Of a stretch of 64,000 bases of DNA, positions 41,562-61,036 are shown one piece after another. Every line of letters begins with the position of its first letter. Within the stretch, counting starts at the first letter, position 1. Location: contig OY783218.1 in assembly GCA_963678705.1 (NCBI GenBank), forward strand, positions 13,340,152-13,404,151, given 5' to 3'. The DNA is from Panorpa germanica. Taxonomy: Eukaryota; Arthropoda; Insecta; Mecoptera; Panorpidae. The position numbers were made by a program, and so were the translations under genes. The notes under the pieces are model-generated. The model had not been told where the DNA came from. It worked only from the letters and a program-made list of their open reading frames with translations, and made no database searches.

Positions 41562-43703
41562 CTAATTATTCTTTACATCTAACTGCTTAACAATTTGATT
41601 AGATATAATTGCAGTAGCTTCACTGGCATTTGGTATTAAAAATCTATCCATATCTGAAATCAGTAATGTATCCCCATTGGGAATGCCATACTTGAACGTG
41701 ATTAAATCACGATGACGCTTTTTTGCTGTTATTTTTACGATATTTGAGAGTGGACGACTGACAATAACTTGAGCTTTTCCTTTCTGTCGTACTTGATCTC
41801 TCAGAACAATCAAATGATTATGTGTAACTAATAAATGACTATCAAACATATACCCATTCATATGAACTTCTTGGCATTTAAAAGAGCTTATTACATCGGA
41901 TCTTTTGAGCCAATCTTGAATTGTAACAATCTCTTTCGTTTCCTCTTCGAGATTAGTAGATTCCACTGGCAAACTATCATCATTGTCTTCATCAATACTA
42001 AAGACTGGTGCTACGTTGCGATACCGCTTTCCCTTTTCACTACTAGAAACATGACGTTCCATTACCTGTGTATTAGCTACGTTTGGATTTACGATATAAT
42101 CATAAAGTTTTCCCTTAACTTCAGCAGACTTAGATTTCATTGCTGCCGATAGTTTTCCAAATAGATCTGTTGATTGGCCTTGGCGTTCGCTTTGACTAGG
42201 TTTTGTACGAAGAACTCCGCGGTGATCTGGTTGACAAACTAAACATTGAATAGGGTCATGATCCTCTAAACAATCAGCCATTTGATCACCGAAATAATCA
42301 TGAATGGCAATATAACCGCCTGTAAGCAATGATACGTATTGTGTATGTTTTTGAAGGAATGAGGCAACAACCATATGAGTGTATTGATCTTCTTCTAGTC
42401 TCCCAGAGCCCAAAAAGCAAAGATGCTCCCCACCAGCATTTGAATTTATAGCGATAGCTTGACGCTGTGCTGAAAGTAAACCTTGAACAGCCATAGCAAA
42501 TGCAGATGGCTCTTGTAACATTAAATTACAATCCAAGTGAAAGGCTGTTGACAAATGACCTGCATTATATTGTTCTGCTGGGCGGCAATCCACAAGAAAG
42601 AACCTAACTGTGTCAGAATTAGCTGGAAGATCCATTGAAGCGTTTTCAACTAGTTCATGTACAGAGACAGGGAGACATAAGGCTTGCGAAACTTCTATAC
42701 TTTCGTCTTGAATATGAGCTCCGTACAATACTTGAAGCAAGTCCGTTTTAAATGAAGCAGGAGTTTTCATAGCATAATAGTGCGCTAAGGAACAGAAGTC
42801 GCTAACATCGTCAGCTTCTAAAGCACATGGCATGTTTGATAATACCTCAACAATTTCTTCTTTCGATTCATTTTTTAAGTTTAATATTTGATCCCGCTGA
42901 TTAACAATCATAATCAACGACAAAAAGAAAACGAAAAACGGATCAGATTGTTGAAAATATAAATCCCACATTGACAAAACCACAGGCAAAGTGCAGGTTG
43001 CGGCGAAAAGTGACTGAAACCATGAGAAACTATAAAGATCTGGTGTTATTCGCTTTGTATCTAAGAAAGAGCATAGCTCTGGATCATGATACAACAACAA
43101 CAATCTAAACACATGAAATGCATTTCCCTTGCTATAACAACCTCTCGGTATGTACGTATCTCTGATAGCTTCAAATAAATTATAGGTTTCTGCTCTAGGT
43201 AACTTTAATGCTATCAACGGCAATAATAATTCAATCCATCCATTATTGCTTTCATATTTTAAGCTACGATTTTTGCAATAGAAAGTTAAGATAGATTCTA
43301 AATCTGATATTACTGAAACTTTATCATCATCTTCATTCCCAAGTTTTTCTACGAATTGTTGACAATCATTTCTTAAAATATTCTGATTAGGTAAATCAAA
43401 GATTTCATTAAAGTGAACTAACTGGTTTCCTTTATCTCTCACATCCAAACATATCTGCCATACATCTGGCCTCAAATTTTCTGGAATTGCCTTTCCTTGA
43501 CATATTCTGTAGATATCACTTCCAACGCAATCGTCTAATAAAGCTGACTCCAGCTCAATCAACCTGACAGATAAACAAGAGAACATTGATATCAGATGAC
43601 TAATTCATATTTGTTTTGAAAACAAATATAAAAGCAATAATATATTTATGCAGGAAAAGAGTTTTATTATTTACCATGTACTATCCTCATCCTCTATCGA
43701 CAT
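41562..43703 (-). CDS. TBC1D23: TBC1 domain family member 23 (TBC1D23)
   Basis: Trans-Golgi tether adaptor: in animals it links golgin-245/golgin-97 on the TGN to the WASH complex on endosome-derived vesicles. Two coding exons, 43675-43703 (M-S-I-E-D-E-D-S-T) and 41562-43563, give 676 residues. Almost the whole protein is in one 2 kb exon. The N-terminal TBC domain (about residues 30-270; NLRPDVWQICLDV, ITPDLYSFSWFQSLFAATC, MWDLYFQQSDPFFVFFLSL) lacks the usual Arg and Gln finger motifs of active Rab GAPs. A rhodanese-like domain follows (RFFLVDCRPAEQYNAGHLS, GGYIAIHDYF). The C-terminus has the PH-like fold region (SDVISSFKCQEVHMNGYMFD; PNGDTLLISDMDRFLIPN). It is divergent from TOM70, with 495 bp between the starts. 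Confidence 0.94.
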
Positions 43704-44198
43704 TTTAACATTTTGTTTTAAATTATAGCACAAAATTTATCAACAAAAGGTTTTCCTTGCAATAATTTTCACAGCTGTGAATAAATGTCACCAATTCCGA
43801 CATTCATCGCATTATTGGTAACTGCTTTGTAATGGCATGGCAAACGCCTACTTGGTAGCAGATTTTATTTTTAGATATTGTTTAATTTATATATAACAAC
43901 AACTAAATTAATAATTAAAAATAAGATTTGATTATTTAGTTATGGCATAATAGTTTCTAATTAAAGAAACCTTGTAATTTCTAATTTTTCACACAGACGT
44001 GTGAGATTGGTTCAATTCCTACCTCTGCTTTAAATTGGTGTATTGGACTCCGTGGAACATTTTGGTACTAATAAAGTGTCAAAAACGTTGTGTAAGGGAG
44101 GTTTTCGTTAATAAATTAACACAAAATATTTTGTGATTACTGATATAATTTTTATTTTGAATTGATCCTCCAAATTTTTTATAACATATAATACTAAA
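43704..44198. promoter_or_regulatory. Bidirectional promoter region TBC1D23 (-) / TOM70 (+)
   Basis: 495 bp between two divergent start codons, so both promoters and both 5' leaders must lie here. Near 44005-44025 is GGTTCAATTCC, a B-box-like motif that may be the remnant of a tRNA-derived SINE. No A box was found at the right distance. Confidence 0.5.
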
Positions 44199-45971
44199 AT
44201 GGTTACTGGTAGTACAGGATCACCGTTTCCAAAGTGGCAGCTTGCTATTTTACTTGGGGCACCGGTCGCACTAGGATTAGGTTATCTTTACATGCGAAAT
44301 AGTACAGCAAAAGGATCAAACAGAGATAAAAAGAAATTAGCGGAATTAACAGATAAATCTATATCACTGGATGAAGACAACGCGGTGGAAGATTCAAAAA
44401 GTTCTGAAACCCCAGTTCAGAGATCTCAGCGCTTCAAAAATAAAGGAAACACTTTTTTCAAAAGTGGAAAATATGATGATGCTATTAAAATGTATAGACG
44501 TGCCATCGAAGAATGTCCAGACGACAGCACTTCAGATATGGCTACATATTACCAAAATTGTGCAGCAGCATATGAACAACTAAAGCGCTGGAGCATGGTT
44601 AAAAGCGATTGTACTAAAGCATTAGAATTGAATCCTAGATATATTAAAGCTTTGCACAGAAGAGCTAGAGCTTACGAAACAACAAATGAGTTAGAGGAGT
44701 GTCTTGAAGATATTACCGCTGTTTGCATAATGGAAGGTTTCCAAAATCAAAGCTCTTTGATCATGGCAGATCGTGTTCTAAAACAATTGGGTAGAACTCA
44801 TGCTCGAGAGGCCATGGAGAACAGAGAACCTGTAATGCCGAGTAAACATTTTATAAAAACCTATTTTTCATCGTTTTCAGAAGACCCCATTAAACGTACA
44901 ATTATTAACCGTCCAGAAGGTGATACACTTACTGGATACGCGAGAGCCAAACAAGCAATTGACGAACAGAACTACGATGATGTTATACCTGCATGTACAG
45001 AAGAAATAGATTCAAGTGAATCTGAAGCTCAATACAAAATGGAAGCGCTTGTACTTAGGGCAACATTTTATCTGCTAACAGGTCGTCATGATGAAGCTAT
45101 GAGTGATATTAAAACTGTAATCGACAACGAAGAAGCTCCTGTAAAAGTGCGTGTAAATGCTTTAATAAAACGAGGTTCATTATATATGCAACAAGAAAAT
45201 CAAGAACAATGTATGGCAGATTTTGAAAAAGCTTCACAACTAGATCCCACAAATTCCGATGTGTACCATCATAGAGGACAGGTAAATGAATATTACTTTA
45301 ATAAACGTTATAAAATTTAATATTTCATACATTACTAAATACAATTATTTTAATTTCAGGTACAATTACTAATGGAAAATATAAATCAAGCAACAAGTGA
45401 TTTTCACAAAGCTGTTGAATTAAATCCCGATTTTGAAATCGCTTTCGTGCAAAAAATTTATACTGACTACAGATACGCATTTTCTGTTAAAGATGTTGAC
45501 AAATTAAAGGCCGTTATGCTCGCATTTGAAGATGCTATCAAAAAGTTTCCTCGCTGCCCAGAATGTTACACATTGTATGCTCAAGTTTTATGCGACCAAC
45601 AACAATTTACCAAAGCAGACACATTTTTCCAAAAAGCTATTGATGTTGATCCTCATAATGCCACAATTCATGTTCATCGAGGTCTTCTGAGATTGCAATG
45701 GAATGGTGATATAGCAACTGCTGTTGAAATAATACAGCATGCCATTGAAATTGACTCCAAATGTGAATTTGGATATGAAACCTTAGGAACAATCGAAGTT
45801 CAAAGAGGCAATTTAGAAAATGCTATTTCTCTGTTTGGCAAAGCTTTAAATCTTGCCAAGACTGAATTGGAGATGGCGCATTTATTTTCTTTGAAAGATG
45901 CTGCCACTGCTCAAATGAAAGTTTCGAAAAAATATAATATTGGACTGCAGGGTCCTTCAGCTTTGCTTTAA
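44199..45971 (+). CDS. TOMM70: Mitochondrial import receptor subunit TOM70
   Basis: Outer mitochondrial membrane receptor that takes Hsp70/Hsp90-bound carrier and other hydrophobic precursors and passes them to the TOM pore. Exons 44199-45281 and 45360-45971 give 564 residues. An N-terminal membrane anchor (about residues 15-32, LAILLGAPVALGLGYLYM) is followed by a charged linker. Eleven or so TPR motifs follow: the first clamp-type set begins RFKNKGNTFFKSGKYDDAIK and includes CAAAYEQLKRW and KALHRRARAYE, while later repeats include YHHRGQV, AFEDAIKKFPRCPECYTLYA and GYETLGTIEVQRGNLENAIS. The clamp residues (KxxGN...N...KxxxR) that bind the chaperone EEVD tail are present. Its likely clients include the two mitochondrial carriers further along this window. 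Confidence 0.94.
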
Positions 45972-52765: not shown

Positions 52766-55700
52766 TTAAAACACCATATTCAAAACGCTTTGTGCTATTT
52801 CAAATCCTAAAAAGCACGCTGCATTTGCTGGAAATGCTCGTAACATAACTGGAATAACGCCCTTATATAAAGCTAAAGGTCCTTCATCCCTTAGTAAATT
52901 CGCAAATACACTTCTAACCCCATGTGGATATGTACCTTCCGGTGCTATTGGAGGAAAACGAATTTAAGTAAATGATTTAATTAAGAGAAAGTGCTGTTCT
53001 GCTTTAGAAACACTTCCGATACGGTTAATTTAAATTTTAATTTAATACAAAATTATTAAATTAAAATTAATAAAAATTAATTAATAAAAAGTATAAATTA
53101 TACTCCATCTCAGTTAATTTTGCGATTTGAAAGAACGTTAAGTAGATCAGACTACTTATATAAAATAATATAAAAAATAACATAGTTACCTGTTTGTAAT
53201 CGACTTTTAAGGATATCTGGCGGCATGGCAACGCACCAATTTAATATACCTGCAAATCCCCCTGACAGTATTGTACTACCTAAAGTGGAATGCTTAGCTC
53301 CACTTGCGTCTACTGGCTGAAATTGCATTTGTAGAAGTTCATATGAAGTAAAATAAACTCCAGATGCAGGAACATCTACAATATAAGGAGTGTCATCAGG
53401 AGTATTCATGAGAAGTAATGAAAAATCTGAACGCTCAGCTACTTCAAAATAAAAAAGGTCAAAATCCTAATAATAAACAAAATACATAATAATCTAAAGA
53501 ATTTGCAATACTAATGAAATAACTGAGATAAAAAATAACTTTTAGATATTTTAAATATTTTTCTCATAGATTGGTTTTTATAGATAATGTCTCCCACATA
53601 GTAAGTGCCAGATAAATATGATAGCTAGCAGTATATCATACTTCCGGTCCGCCTTTTCATTTCCTTTGCAACTATTTTATTTACTATGTTATTTTTTAGA
53701 TTATTGGCTGAGTGAGAAAAGGATCATTAAATTATCGAATGTAAATTACATATAAAATACTATTTAATATTAAAAACTCAAAATAGAATCATCAGATCAT
53801 TCTATAGAACTGCAGATAGTGAGGGAAAAAAGCATATATATACAATTAAATTTAGAGTGAGATCTAAAAAAATGTATACCAGTGATATAAACTACATATA
53901 CATTTTCCCAAAATGTAATGACTTTTATGATTAAGTTTTTAGCGGTGTAACGGACTCTTGCACGATAAAATAAGGCGAGAATAAAAGAAATAATAATTTT
54001 GTAAAAAGTATGATTTTGGGTCAGACTTAAAACAACTGTTTGCGATTGAACCTCACTGCGTTTACTGAGATTTCTTGTGTCCATCTTAAGACAAGAGCCT
54101 TTTTCAATTCATTTTAGGCCCAGTTTTGGACAAAAGAAACAAAATATGCTTAAAATGTAATTATTTGTTCAAAGCATTTCATTTTATCTTTCGACATGTA
54201 TTTTATCAACAAGTTTTTTATTCTAACACCCTTATCATTAAACGATGGATGTTAACGCTGTTGGCGTCAACGTATTGTTGTAGTATTTCTCTACATACTT
54301 ATTAGTTATTTATTGTTGAAAATGCAACACTGAAAATTTAAAATATTATGAAGAGTGAAGATAGGACAAATTAAATTCAACTTCTGTTAGTTTTTGTAAT
54401 GGTGATTTAAAAAAAAAAGGAAAAATGTGCAAATTAAATAATTATACAAGTTTAGTGATAATTTATTGTATCTTTGTCGTGGTATGTTAATAAAAAATTC
54501 AAATATTAATTTCATTTTATGATGCGGAAGTGATAGAATATAGAAACTATATCCGTTACACTATTATTTGCAATGCTATAATTTAACATCGTAATTAAAA
54601 TTTTCCGTGTATTATAATTACTAGTGATGTCACGCCATGATATAGATTTCTCCCTTTAATTTTACTGTGCCTTAAAATCACCCTTTTAATTTCTAATAAT
54701 TTTTTTAATATCAATACGAGTCTATACTACAATTTTAAATAATTTAGGACTGAAACTACTACCATTTGCTAATTTTAATTTATATTATAGGGAGCTCTAT
54801 GCAAATCGGCTCAGTGGGATAGAAATTCATGTCCCACTTCGTGTACGTGTCAGCAAAGTCACTTAGATGATTTGTCAATCTCACGATGGATCCAAGAAAC
54901 AGATACCTCCTTTGGTGGAAAAAAGGAATCAAATGGATATCCACAGACTAGCAATCAACAAGTTAATTACAATGACGATGATTCGCACGAAGACAATGTT
55001 AGTATAAATGATATATTTCCTTTCTACATATATAAGTATTTATTTGAGTGAGATATTTTTTTTAGAGCTTTGAAGAAGATGAATCTTCCGCCATTAGTCC
55101 GTTAGTGAAATCAATTTTATGTCTTATCCAAAGCGACCCCAAAGATCTTCTGAAGACAATACCCCGTGACGTTCAAGCACTGACTCTTCTACAACCAAGT
55201 GTTCATTTGGAAGGGGTGTTGTTACCATCCAGCATGTTTTTAGAGTTTCATGATTTAGTTGCTTTAGAGATTCGAGGAAAAGATACAAATTTAACATTTC
55301 TATTAGACAAACCACTGGAAGAACTACAGTACTTGAATTTAGAAGGCATAAAATTGAGAGGAATGGGATTCAATATGTACGACTCGACAGATGACCCTTA
55401 TGAGGGCTTTGATTACATTCCGAAAATAGAAACAAATATTTACAACTTAAATTTAGAAATAAAATCGGAGACAATGATAATTCCTTATGAAGAATACGTA
55501 AAACAGCAAAAGATTCGTGGAGAAACGGATCCTCTGGTGACATTCAATCAATGGAACGATCTTACCGTTCTACGAATTCATGACTGTGGCTTATTGGATA
55601 TTCAGTGGGAAATGTTTAACGGACTAAATCATCTGTTGTACTTATCACTGGAGCACAATGGACTTCGATTTATCCCAAGTCATGCTTTTCATGGTACACC

Positions 55701-58444
55701 AAATCTCAAAACTTTGTCCTTAGCTCATAACGATATCCTAAACTTATTCTACAGAGCATTAGCTGGTTTAATGCAATTGGAAAAGCTTGATTTATCGTAT
55801 AATCAATTAACTAAATTATCAGAACTATCATTTCCTCCATTTCCAAGTTTATTGACAACAGATTTACGTGACAATCCCATTAAGAATATATATCCCAGTA
55901 CTTTCGCGATAATGAATGCTACTAACTCTCTTATTATTGGATCGGAAGAAACCGCTTTAGAGTTAACTCCAAATGCATTTCTAAGTTTGGAATTGTTGCA
56001 GGTTTTAACGCTAAGTAATGTTAACGTCGATTTATTAACCAGTGATTTATTTAACGGTTTAGTTAGTCTAAAATCATTAATTCTTAAAGGAAAAATTAGT
56101 TCGATTCAATTTGATGCTTTTTCTGTAATGAAATCTCTTTCAATTTTAATTTTAAGGGATTGTAATATCGAAACTATATCAATGGATGCCTTCTACGGTT
56201 TGAAATATCTACGAAAACTAGATCTATCGCATAATCTTCTAAGAATTTTGCCACCAGGTTTGTTCGATGAGCATATCGAGTTGGTGGAACTATATTTAGA
56301 TAATAATCATTTCGTAGAGTTACCAGGCAGAATTTTTGTTAATTTAAAAGCAAAATTAATTCGACTGACCCAAAATCCTTGGCATTGCTCTTGCGCGATG
56401 TCTGATTGGAATCCAATGATTATTAATAAATATAAAAAGAAAAGTTTTAGTAAATGTCATTACGATTATGAAAAGGGTTCCATTTGTAAAACAGTTGATG
56501 AAAAATACGTTTACGAAAATAAAATGGCTCCAAAATGTTTAACTCCTTTAAAATATAAAAATTGGAGCGTTTTTCATGTATTAAGAAAACAAATTCGGTG
56601 TAACCGAAATATAAAAACGAAAGAACAAATAAAATTAGAGAAGAAAGCTTATTTAAAACTAAAAGCTAAGAATTACAAAGAATCAAACACCACAGTAAAA
56701 CCAGAGAATGTTAAAAATATTTTAGAAGAAATTAATAATGAAATTCCTTTTGCGAATATTTCTCCTGTTGATAAGTTTAGTGATTTGGAATCAGATGGGA
56801 AATTGGATCAGTTAAACGAAATATTAAATAAGCCGGAAGCTCGGCCATATTTAAATGATGAAATTAACGATTTAAACGAAATTCCAGTTCCTGTTAATAA
56901 TATGAACAAAGTGGACCATAGCCATGAGGATCAAAATAAAAATAATATCATTTTAAATAACTATAAAACAAAATTTGATCATAAGTTGAAGTATACTTAT
57001 CATAAACTTAATAATGTTTAATTTATTTAATTCTAATATAAGTAGATTTTAAGTTTGATTCTGTCATAAGCTTAGACACACACAAAACCGTCCGTGAATT
57101 AACACGAAAATTGCAATTAATATTATTATCGCAATATATATAATTGCAAAAAATTATAATCGTTATTTTGTATAATTTTAGTTACAAGATACCACTACGA
57201 AAAATATATAAGTTCCATTAGTACTACTAGTGATTTAGAATTACTATTTCAACTGAAATTTTTATTGTGGAAAATATATAAATATTTAACTCAGGCACCT
57301 AAAATACCCAATGCTCAATATTTTGTGTGTAAATAAGTTAGTATAAGTATGACAAAGATTATAAAACAATGATGTAACTATCTGTATATTTAGACTACTA
57401 TACTATAAGATTATAAAAATATTTTAGCGCTGGTACAGCAATATAGCATTTACGTAACGTTTACGCAGGATGTTCTGATACGGACGTTATAGATTCATAG
57501 CTGTGTTTTGTGGGTATATCTCATAAATGATATATTTGAATATAAAATAATTTGTATTTGTGTAAGAAATAAAATAAATAAATCTCAGTACGTATACTGA
57601 TCTTGATAAACATAGATTTGAATTTTTGGAGAGTGGTGTCACAAATTATGGCAATGGTTGAAAGAGACTGGTCAATATAGGATATTTTTTTTATAAAATA
57701 ATATCTCTAATATGTTAAGCATCTAACCTCTTAATAATGTGGCACAAAATCCTTTATAAATACTGCGTATACCACCCTCTCTATACAATTTCTTTGCACA
57801 ATCCCACATTCCATCATATTTTGGTGGATCTGATCCTCCTGCCTTAAAGAAAATTATATTTGTATACATTCATATATTTAACGCATTAAGATGTATAATA
57901 TACTCACTTGAATTTGCAGTAGACATTTAATTCTCTCTCCTGGAGCCATAACAAATGTTGTAAATACTCCAGAAAACATTCCAGCTCCGCCTATTTGTAA
58001 TGGAGTTAGTTCGGCTGAACCTGATCCTTGCATTATTCTTTTACCTACCCCAAAACCAAAGAAACTAATGCCTATAATAGGTGTGACAGCTGTTAATGGG
58101 GCTGTAATTCCTTTATATAATCCTCCTATACCTTCTTGTTTTATGATCTTTTTAGCACAATCAACTGTTCCTTCATAAAGAGGTTTTTCACCAGGTCCAG
58201 GAAGCGGCATAGTTTGCAACCGAACCTGATAATATTAGCTTAATAATTAGATAAAATTATTTCTTAAATAGTAGTATATGATTTAAAGGAAATTCTTTAC
58301 AAATGAAGTACTTCGAAGATGTAGACCTTTATTTAAAAATATTACAATTACCTTAAGCGTATCGAAAGGATGTCCTACAAGCACTTGTACGATACCTCCG
58401 AATCCTCCCGACAAAAAGTATTTTACTGGATTGACTTCTCCCAT
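52766..58444 (-). CDS. Mitochondrial carnitine/acylcarnitine-type carrier, proximal tandem copy
   Basis: SLC25 carrier of the inner mitochondrial membrane; relatives exchange acylcarnitine for carnitine to feed beta-oxidation. Five exons: 58352-58444, 57908-58225, 57728-57842, 53190-53375 and 52766-52944, giving 296 residues. All three carrier signatures are present: [23 protein letters not shown] and [11 protein letters not shown]. Each repeat has its usual helix pair. Intron positions and phases equal those of the neighbouring colt-like gene, so the two arose by DNA duplication in tandem. The third intron is 4,352 nt, against 64 nt in the paralogue, and contains the LRR gene on the other strand. 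Substrate is inferred; this copy may have diverged in role. Confidence 0.88.
54425..57021 (+). CDS. Secreted leucine-rich repeat protein, nested in a carrier intron
   Basis: Three exons: 54425-54481, 54791-54997 and 55066-57021, giving 739 residues. Exon 1 is a complete signal-peptide exon (hydrophobic [11 protein letters not shown]). Exon 2 carries a cysteine cap (CPTSCTC) and an acidic Asn/Asp/Gln-rich linker. Exon 3 holds at least a dozen LRRs between about residues 130 and 520 ([53 protein letters not shown]). These are closed by an LRRCT cap ([12 protein letters not shown] ... [12 protein letters not shown]). The remaining 200 residues are Lys/Glu/Asn-rich and show no transmembrane helix or GPI-type tail, so the product is probably extracellular. 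No orthologue is recognised. It could be an adhesion or acid-labile-subunit-like protein. It lies antisense within the third intron of the proximal carrier gene. Confidence 0.85.
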
Positions 58445-59184: not shown

Positions 59185-61036
59185 TTACATTCCCGGAGCA
59201 ATTATATTTAACACCTTCATACAAATTTCAAAACCTATAAAACATGCTGCGTTCGCTGGGAAAGCCCTAAGCATTACAGGCGTAACACCCTTATACAACG
59301 CTAAAGGTCCTTCTTGTTTCATTAATTGTCTGAAAACATCTCTAATACCATTTGGATAAGTGCCTTCCGGAGCTAAAATATATATTTATTTAATTTAAAG
59401 ATCTATTGCAATTTTATTATTAATAATAAACTTTCAATTTACCAGTTTGCAATCTACTCTTTAATACATCAGCAGGCATTCCAACAGCCCAGTTTGCAAT
59501 GCCAGCCATTCCACCAGCAAAAACTGTGCTTACTAATCCAATTTTGCCTTTCCTACCATCCGCATCTCTCGGACAAAGAACTTCTTGGATCCATTCATAT
59601 GTTAAGAAGTACATTCCACTAGCGGGAACATCTATAAATCATGAATTTATTTAGAAATATATACAATGAAGTAACACAACGTGAATGTTTCGAACCTCGA
59701 AGTAATGTAGCACAGCTCCCTTTGTAAATACTTTTAAGACCTCCTTCCTTGTACAATTGCTTTGCACAATCTGTCATTCCACTATATTTTTGTGGTTGGT
59801 TTCCTCCTTGCTGGTAAGTTTATTTTACATTAGCATAGTGAATCGTATATAAAATGGTGAACAAAAGTAAACATTAGTTTTTGATTATTTAGCGAACGAT
59901 GAGGAGCTGATCAACGTATAAAATGGGTTTAATTATCAGTCATTTACCTGATTCTTGGTATGACCAGGAATGCATGAAAATATACTTCATGTTTTTATTG
60001 TATCATTATATAAAAAAGTAAAATTTAAGTAATACTTTTTTACATATTATTTTTAAAATGTGCTGAAAATGAGCGTTACTATTGTATAACACATATTTAC
60101 CTGAATTTGCAATAAGCATTTAATTCTTTCTCCTGGAGCCATTACAGTAGTAGTAAAGACTCCGGAGAAAGCACCAGCTGCAAATAATTGTGGCAAGGAC
60201 AACTGCTCATCAGGCGTACTTTGTTGTAACTTTTTACCTACTCCAAAACCAAAGAAACTCATAGCAAAAATAGGAGCCACTCCAGTTAGAGGGGCAGACA
60301 TGCCACGGTATAGACCACGAAATCCTTCTTTTTGTACTGTTTTATTGAAGCAGTCAAATGTGCCAGTATACTGAGCTGGTTGACCAATTGTGGCGAGCGG
60401 CATTGTTTGTAAGCGAACCTATTCATCGAAAATAAAACTTCATAAAATGTCTTAAAACATACTACAATAATTTATTTTACAAATCTTTTTGTGTATTTAC
60501 TCATATACTCGTACAACAAAGAGAACATGATTTTTAGAGAAAGTAGTAGTTTTTTAAATTAAATTCTTTAATGTAGATAAACGTTGAATCATTATTATGA
60601 GATTATGTTTATCATTCTATTATCAGTTTTAATTAATTTTGTTATTAATTACGGTTCTTTAATCAGATACATTGTGGACTGATTTAGGTTTCAAATATGC
60701 CGCTCAATTTATTTTAATTAAAATAAATTGAAACAGATTCTAAAGAACCAGTGTAGTAACTTTAATGGATATCAATATAATTATTGAATTTAATAATAAA
60801 TTCATTTTAATTTATGGGTATAGATAAAAATATAGCTTATCATTATGACTGAGTAAATGACGTCGACGAGCTTATGTCAAACTTTACATAATATAACCTA
60901 AAAAAATTATAATAAAAGAATGAGAAATAACAAATTTTACCTTAATTGTATCTAAGGGATGCCCTGCAAGTACAGTGCAAATACCCCCAAATCCTCCAGA
61001 TAAGAAATATTTAATAGGGCTCGAACTTTCAGACAT
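59185..61036 (-). CDS. colt: Mitochondrial carnitine/acylcarnitine carrier (colt-like)
   Basis: Inner-membrane exchanger of acylcarnitines for free carnitine; the Drosophila orthologue is congested-like trachea. Five exons: 60941-61036, 60101-60418, 59696-59810, 59443-59631 and 59185-59372, giving 301 residues, close to the 301-306 usual for the family. The three signatures are [23 protein letters not shown] and [11 protein letters not shown], and the ending is [13 protein letters not shown] then [20 protein letters not shown] assign colt to this copy because its length and third repeat are more family-like than those of the neighbour at 52766-58444, but which of the two is the functional orthologue is inference. 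The third-exon donor is GTTCGA, a weak site; the paralogue uses GTTAGA at the same place. Confidence 0.88.

What the first reader, a model, noticed from the sequence alone, without database searches (positions are those of the whole stretch)
53376..57727. Complete secreted LRR gene nested antisense in an intron of only one of two tandem carrier paralogues
The proximal carnitine-type carrier and its neighbour share every intron position and phase, but intron 3 is 4,352 nt in one and 64 nt (59632-59695) in the other. The extra length holds a full three-exon LRR gene with signal peptide and LRRCT, on the opposite strand. Either the gene moved into the intron after the duplication, or the duplication and later loss left it on one side. 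Antisense transcription across a housekeeping carrier could couple the two genes.
Basis: partly seen in the sequence, partly recalled or inferred. Interest (0 to 1): 0.72.

Follow-up and report, generated by a model that had tools for sequence, protein, structure and literature searches.

The report
Secreted LRR gene inside carrier intron
In what looks like the German scorpionfly genome, a complete gene for a probably secreted leucine-rich-repeat protein sits backwards inside an intron of one of two neighbouring carrier genes, a tidy new example of an arrangement already well known in flies and vertebrates.

Summary
Two tandem carnitine-carrier-like genes (minus strand) share all four intron positions and phases (0,0,1,1). 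Intron 3 is 4,352 nt in the proximal copy (53376-57727) and 64 nt in the distal copy (59632-59695). The long intron holds a three-exon plus-strand gene (54425-57021) predicted to encode a 739-aa LRR protein with a signal-peptide-like N-terminus and no later membrane segment. No close copy of the LRR gene was found elsewhere in this genome. The carriers are old duplicates: 193/296 residues identical, synonymous sites saturated. Arrival of the LRR gene after the duplication is the most economical history, but no insect outgroup could be searched. Nothing here supports coupling: the only AATAAA/ATTAAA signals found between the LRR stop and host exon 3 end about 145 nt before that exon, so mature transcripts are predicted not to overlap. 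LRR genes nested antisense in introns are established (2mit in tim2, LRRTMs in alpha-catenins). Verdict: real, a new example of a known arrangement, modest interest.

The parts
52766..58444 (-). proximal carnitine/acylcarnitine-carrier-like gene (host), CDS span, 5 exons, 296 aa
   Evidence: gene model; Pfam Mito_carr E=7.8e-73
53376..57727 (-). host intron 3, 4,352 nt, phase 1, GT-AG
   Evidence: as DNA it matched only itself in the genome search, which skips very common words
54425..57021 (+). nested LRR gene, CDS span, 3 exons, 739 aa, probably secreted
54425..54481 (+). LRR exon 1: start codon and most of the hydrophobic N-terminus
   Evidence: splice model; hydropathy maximum at residues 8-26; codon score not informative
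54791..54997 (+). LRR exon 2: end of signal peptide, CPTSCTC cap-like cysteine cluster, acidic stretch
   Evidence: no Pfam domain at E<=1
55066..57021 (+). LRR exon 3: LRR array, C-terminal cysteine cap by eye, Asn- and charge-rich tail
57568..57582 (+). three AATAAA hexamers (57568, 57573, 57577), the only AATAAA/ATTAAA found between the LRR stop and host exon 3
59185..61036 (-). distal carnitine/acylcarnitine-carrier-like gene, CDS span, 5 exons, 301 aa
   Evidence: Pfam Mito_carr E=7.1e-77
59632..59695 (-). distal intron 3, 64 nt, phase 1, GT-AG

Best explanation
This is an ordinary host-nested gene pair. An old tandem duplication gave two carnitine/acylcarnitine-type mitochondrial carriers with identical exon structure. 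A self-contained, intron-bearing gene for an extracellular LRR protein then came to lie, on the opposite strand, in intron 3 of the proximal copy, arriving as DNA rather than as a spliced retrocopy (or gaining its two introns later). The host pre-mRNA is spliced across the 4.35-kb intron. The LRR gene uses its own promoter within the 1,049 nt of intron upstream of its start codon and its own poly(A) signal near 57568-57582, so the mature mRNAs do not overlap. The protein would be secreted and act outside the cell as an LRR binding or adhesion protein. Shown on sequence: gene models, shared intron positions and phases, old duplication, no close copy found in this genome. Inferred: order of events, DNA-level arrival, independent expression, extracellular role.
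For: Exact gene models with GT-AG splices. 651-codon open frame; LRR_8 E=2.9e-36. Best solved-structure matches are extracellular LRR proteins (acid labile subunit, LGR4, LRRC15, Toll-like receptors), best E=6.3e-29 (60 of 226 shown). Hydropathy peak at residues 8-26 and no 19-residue window above 1.28 starting after residue 60 (0.08 after 560). In the genome search 2 of 81 rows are the gene's own exons; the other 79 lie within residues 214-550 at 26-41% identity. Intron DNA matched only itself. Carrier identity 193/296, NG86 dN 0.29, dS 2.4. Identity is alike on both sides of the nested gene (113/175 in exons 1-3, 80/121 in exons 4-5, Fisher p=0.81). AATAAA only at 57568/57573/57577.
Against: No RNA evidence for either gene. 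No related insect genome could be searched, so the order of events is parsimony only. Ten minus-strand AATAAA hexamers in intron 3 could in principle truncate the host transcript. One search scored 61 of 551 candidates, so a distant full-length relative could be missed; skips very common words, so a highly repeated element could be missed. Exon 1 rests on splice fit and hydrophobicity alone. The promoter is not identified: TATA-like and initiator-like words occur upstream but were not tested against chance.
Confidence: 0.7

Rival explanations
1. The LRR gene was already nested in the single ancestral carrier; the pair was then duplicated together and the distal copy lost its nested gene and shrank its intron to 64 nt.
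For: Both carriers share all intron positions, so the host intron existed before the duplication. Losses of nested structures are documented in vertebrates: in 12 of 19 such cases the nested gene encodes an LRR-superfamily protein (PMC3933685, section read).
Against: It needs an extra event. No LRR relic was detected elsewhere in the window by tblastn and no second close copy in the genome. Nesting is said to be generally gained much more often than lost (PMC3240667, passage).
Confidence: 0.22
2. Antisense transcription of the LRR gene regulates the proximal carrier (interference or double-stranded RNA), and this helped the two carriers diverge in expression.
For: The LRR gene is antisense within the host, so interference is physically possible, and only one of the two copies is exposed to it. 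The proximal copy has more lineage-specific changes than the distal in each of three outgroup comparisons (17 v 8, 18 v 13, 14 v 9), though none is significant.
Against: Predicted mature mRNAs do not overlap. 2mit showed no functional relation to its host tim2 in the assay used (PMC3786989). Expression profiles of host and nested genes are said often to show inverse or no significant correlation, with functional relations usually unclear (PMC3240667, passage); inverse correlation would not by itself speak against this rival. Largest rate chi-square 3.24, 1 df.
Confidence: 0.08
3. The proximal carrier is a composite: exons 1-3 and exons 4-5 come from two partial copies that flanked an LRR gene and were later spliced together.
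For: It would explain an LRR gene with its own introns lying between carrier exons without any insertion.
Against: Exons 1-3 and 4-5 are equally diverged from the distal copy (113/175 against 80/121, p=0.81), and the junction keeps the exact shared position and phase.
Confidence: 0.03

Closest known systems
2mit nested in timeless2 (Drosophila, honey bee)
   Same: LRR gene with signal peptide, on the opposite strand, inside one intron of an unrelated host (PMC3786989, abstract and sections 5, 9, 11)
   Different: 2MIT is a 1,141-aa single-pass membrane protein of 2 exons; the present protein is 739 aa, 3 exons, with no predicted membrane segment. The host here is unrelated and is one of a tandem pair.
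LRRTM1-3 nested in alpha-catenin genes (vertebrates)
   Same: LRR genes antisense in a host intron; in clawed frogs one host, ctnna1, lacks its nested gene (PMC3933685, abstract, section 17 and first part of the discussion)
   Different: There the authors propose arrival by retrotransposition and multiplication together with the hosts in genome duplications; here the nested gene has introns and no close paralogue was found in the genome.
TipE cluster nested in CG18675 (insects)
   Same: Insect genes nested in an intron, with nesting and escape among lineages (PMC3240667, passages)
   Different: Several sodium-channel auxiliary-subunit genes, not an LRR gene; terminal exons of host and TipE overlap, which is not predicted here.
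colt and CG3476 (dMME1) of Drosophila
   Same: Two insect homologues of SLC25A20 (PMC7504413, passages)
   Different: Neither sequence was compared here, so which scorpionfly copy corresponds to which is open.

Membership tests
Host-nested antisense gene pair | Complete gene lies within one intron of another gene | tested here: met
   54425-57021 lies inside intron 53376-57727
Host-nested antisense gene pair | Opposite strand | tested here: met
   LRR plus strand, host minus strand
Host-nested antisense gene pair | Both genes transcribed | not testable with these tools
Extracellular LRR protein | LRR array | tested here: met
   LRR_8 E=2.9e-36
Extracellular LRR protein | N-terminal signal peptide | tested here: inconclusive
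   hydropathy maximum at residues 8-26 fits one, but no dedicated predictor was available
Extracellular LRR protein | LRRNT and LRRCT cysteine caps | tested here: inconclusive
   cysteine patterns by eye (CPTSCTC; NPWHCSC); no Pfam cap model listed at E<=0.001; exon 2 alone has no Pfam hit at E<=1
2mit | Transmembrane segment with cytoplasmic tail | tested here: not met
   no 19-residue window above 1.28 starting after residue 60, against 1.96 at the N-terminus
Carnitine/acylcarnitine carrier (SLC25A20/colt) | Three mitochondrial-carrier repeats | tested here: met
   3 stretches of PF00153 in each copy
Carnitine/acylcarnitine carrier (SLC25A20/colt) | Orthology to colt, to CG3476 or to SLC25A20 | not testable with these tools
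   no insect protein set to search; the solved-structure library returned 10 sequences, all other carriers; the name rests on recalled signature sequences

The most novel reading that the evidence does not exclude
The LRR gene's arrival in only one of two duplicated carriers put that copy under transcriptional interference or a new shared enhancer and drove the two carriers to separate expression domains: a natural before-and-after experiment in how a nested gene reshapes its host.
Probability: 0.06. Interest if true: 0.5.

Novelty: new member of a known kind. Interest (0 to 1): 0.22.

Why it matters
Paralogous hosts side by side, one with and one without a nested gene, offer an internal control for asking whether antisense nesting affects the host. 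LRR genes recur as nested genes in vertebrates and flies, and this adds what appears to be a mecopteran case. As it stands it is a good locus for a test rather than a discovery.

Tried and rejected
Composite-host idea tested by exon-wise divergence and rejected. Transposon delivery: no second copy of the intron DNA was found (but that search skips very common words and simple repeats, so it does not rule out a highly repeated element), and the local repeat scan showed no terminal repeats around the LRR gene (the strongest inverted pair, 53164-53186 with 53683-53705, is AT-rich and brackets host exon 4). Tandem Repeats Finder gave only short arrays. Parent copy of the LRR gene: none found. Corresponding introns of the two carriers: local-alignment scores of introns 2-4 are within shuffles (114 of 200, 32 of 60 and 119 of 200 shuffles reach them), intron 1 is marginal (5 of 200); blastn at E<=1 gave many short AT-rich hits between introns, mostly non-corresponding ones. 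Structure prediction from the single sequence gave no usable model (mean pLDDT 35.9), so no fold search was made. Relative rates of the two carriers with three other carrier genes of this genome as outgroups (four loci, L005 and L010 being the same gene, cut at its first methionine and so without its first repeat; L018 partial) gave no significant difference. For dN/dS, ML gave dN 0.24 and dS 18.2 and YN00 failed, as expected at saturation. NCBIfam on exon 3 gave two LRR effector models far below cut-off (33.9 of 450 and 23 of 500 bits). Telomere repeats were sought to find the insect order; no run of three units of the motifs tried in the 47 loci then held, 19 of them contig ends. Papers: I saw none on a colt tandem pair with a nested gene in the listings (1 of 1 shown; 20 of 37; 20 of 68; 12 of 382; 8 of 17; 6 of 6; 0 found); most listings were capped. 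Not run: the search for related loci, the DNA search and search_dna_similar, since their collections are bacterial, archaeal, viral or plasmid (no metagenome scan was allowed).
Full report
Identity of the window. The window lies at C15:13340152-13404151 of a 464,208,970-base assembly in 249 contigs. The contig lengths seen (C21 47,989,005; C7 22,111,551; C1 30,639,171; C15 15,303,954 and others) agree with the published Panorpa germanica assembly GCA_963678705.1: longest scaffold 47,989,005 bp, scaffold N50 22,111,551 bp, and the chromosome table (PMC11464959, two of four parts of the text read). The published assembly has 254 scaffolds and 464,228,243 bp, slightly more than is held here. So this is very probably chromosome 15 of the German scorpionfly (Mecoptera).

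The observation. Both carriers were rebuilt exon by exon. All eight introns are GT-AG, phases are 0,0,1,1 in both genes, and positions coincide in the protein alignment. Both genes are open from ATG to stop (296 and 301 aa) and match the mitochondrial carrier family in three stretches each. A genome search with the distal protein found no third close copy; the next best gene by E-value is 42% identical. That these are carnitine/acylcarnitine carriers rests on recalled signature sequences, not on a comparison with a named orthologue.

The nested gene. Three plus-strand exons (54425-54481, 54791-54997, 55066-57021) join in phase 0 to 739 codons plus stop. Exon 3 alone holds 651 open codons, with a chance probability near 10^-20.6 at this composition, and codon usage supports the frame in exons 2 and 3 but cannot judge exon 1. 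LRR_8 matches at E=2.9e-36. The best solved-structure matches are extracellular LRR proteins (226 distinct sequences matched, 60 shown). A hydrophobic N-terminus is followed by no other segment of that strength, so the protein is probably secreted. The N- and C-terminal caps were recognised by eye only; no Pfam cap model was listed at E<=0.001.

Copy number. In the genome search 2 of 81 rows are the gene's own exons and the other 79 fall within residues 214-550 at 26-41% identity (61 of 551 candidates scored, so distant relatives may be missed but a close copy should rank first). The whole intron as DNA matched only itself (that search skips very common words). No parent gene was found.

Age and order of events. 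The carriers are 193/296 identical with saturated synonymous sites (NG86 dN 0.29, dS 2.4; ML dS 18). Corresponding introns 2-4 are no more alike than shuffled sequence, and intron 1 only marginally (5 of 200 shuffles reach its score). Divergence is the same on both sides of the nested gene, so the host is one gene rather than two halves. The duplication is therefore old. Arrival of the LRR gene after the duplication needs one event; presence before it needs an arrival plus a clean loss. The first is preferred (my estimate about 0.75 against 0.22), but no outgroup could be searched: the genome has no relatives held and the other collections on offer are prokaryotic, viral or plasmid.

Coupling. 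After the LRR stop at 57021 the only AATAAA or ATTAAA hexamers on the plus strand before host exon 3 are at 57568, 57573 and 57577, so the LRR mRNA is predicted to end within the intron, and mature antisense overlap is not expected. In the closest published case, 2mit in tim2, the nested LRR gene showed no functional relation to its host in the assay used (PMC3786989, section 9). [quoted passage not shown] Coupling is not excluded; it is unsupported.

Comparison. Intronic genes are about 6% of Drosophila genes (PMC3786989, abstract). Among 19 old vertebrate nested structures not found in frog or chicken, 12 had LRR-superfamily nested genes (PMC3933685). The present case fits this pattern: a new example of a known arrangement. 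The LRR protein has no assigned orthologue here. The host may correspond to colt or to CG3476/dMME1 (PMC7504413, passages); this was not tested.

Confidence. That this is a nested gene pair without demonstrated coupling I hold at about 0.85; the full statement in Best explanation also includes the order of events, so its confidence is set at 0.7, in keeping with 0.22 for the pre-duplication rival.

Verdict. Observation confirmed, interpretation partly supported, interest low to moderate. The one attractive feature is the built-in control: two neighbouring paralogous hosts, one with and one without the nested gene.

Noticed in passing
G000:C5, about 1.0-9.3 Mb: 41 of the 81 rows matched by the LRR protein lie on chromosome 5; 15 of these rows sit in open frames of 755-768 aa, and several come in pairs with identical scores (for example 1,555,846 and 1,594,916): a large, partly recently duplicated LRR gene cluster. 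Rows are not genes; some genes give several rows.
   Followed up: no
window 49478 to about 52320, minus strand: Multi-exon gene just downstream of the proximal carrier; reads like ATRIP/mus304 to me (recalled), but the two ORFs scanned match no Pfam family at E<=0.001.
   Followed up: partly
window 41565-45968: TBC1D23-like gene on the minus strand (PF19430 E=1.7e-39) and a TPR gene on the plus strand that looks like Tom70 (recalled name).
   Followed up: partly
G000:C15:11596438-11597226: Carrier gene with a 379-aa open frame, 42% identical to the distal carrier, on the same chromosome about 1.8 Mb away.
   Followed up: partly
window 54830-55122 (LRR protein residues 33-107): The N-terminal cysteine cluster CPTSCTC is separated from the next cysteine (residue 107) by a long stretch rich in Asn, Asp and Glu, which seems unusual for an LRR N-cap (by eye).
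   Followed up: no
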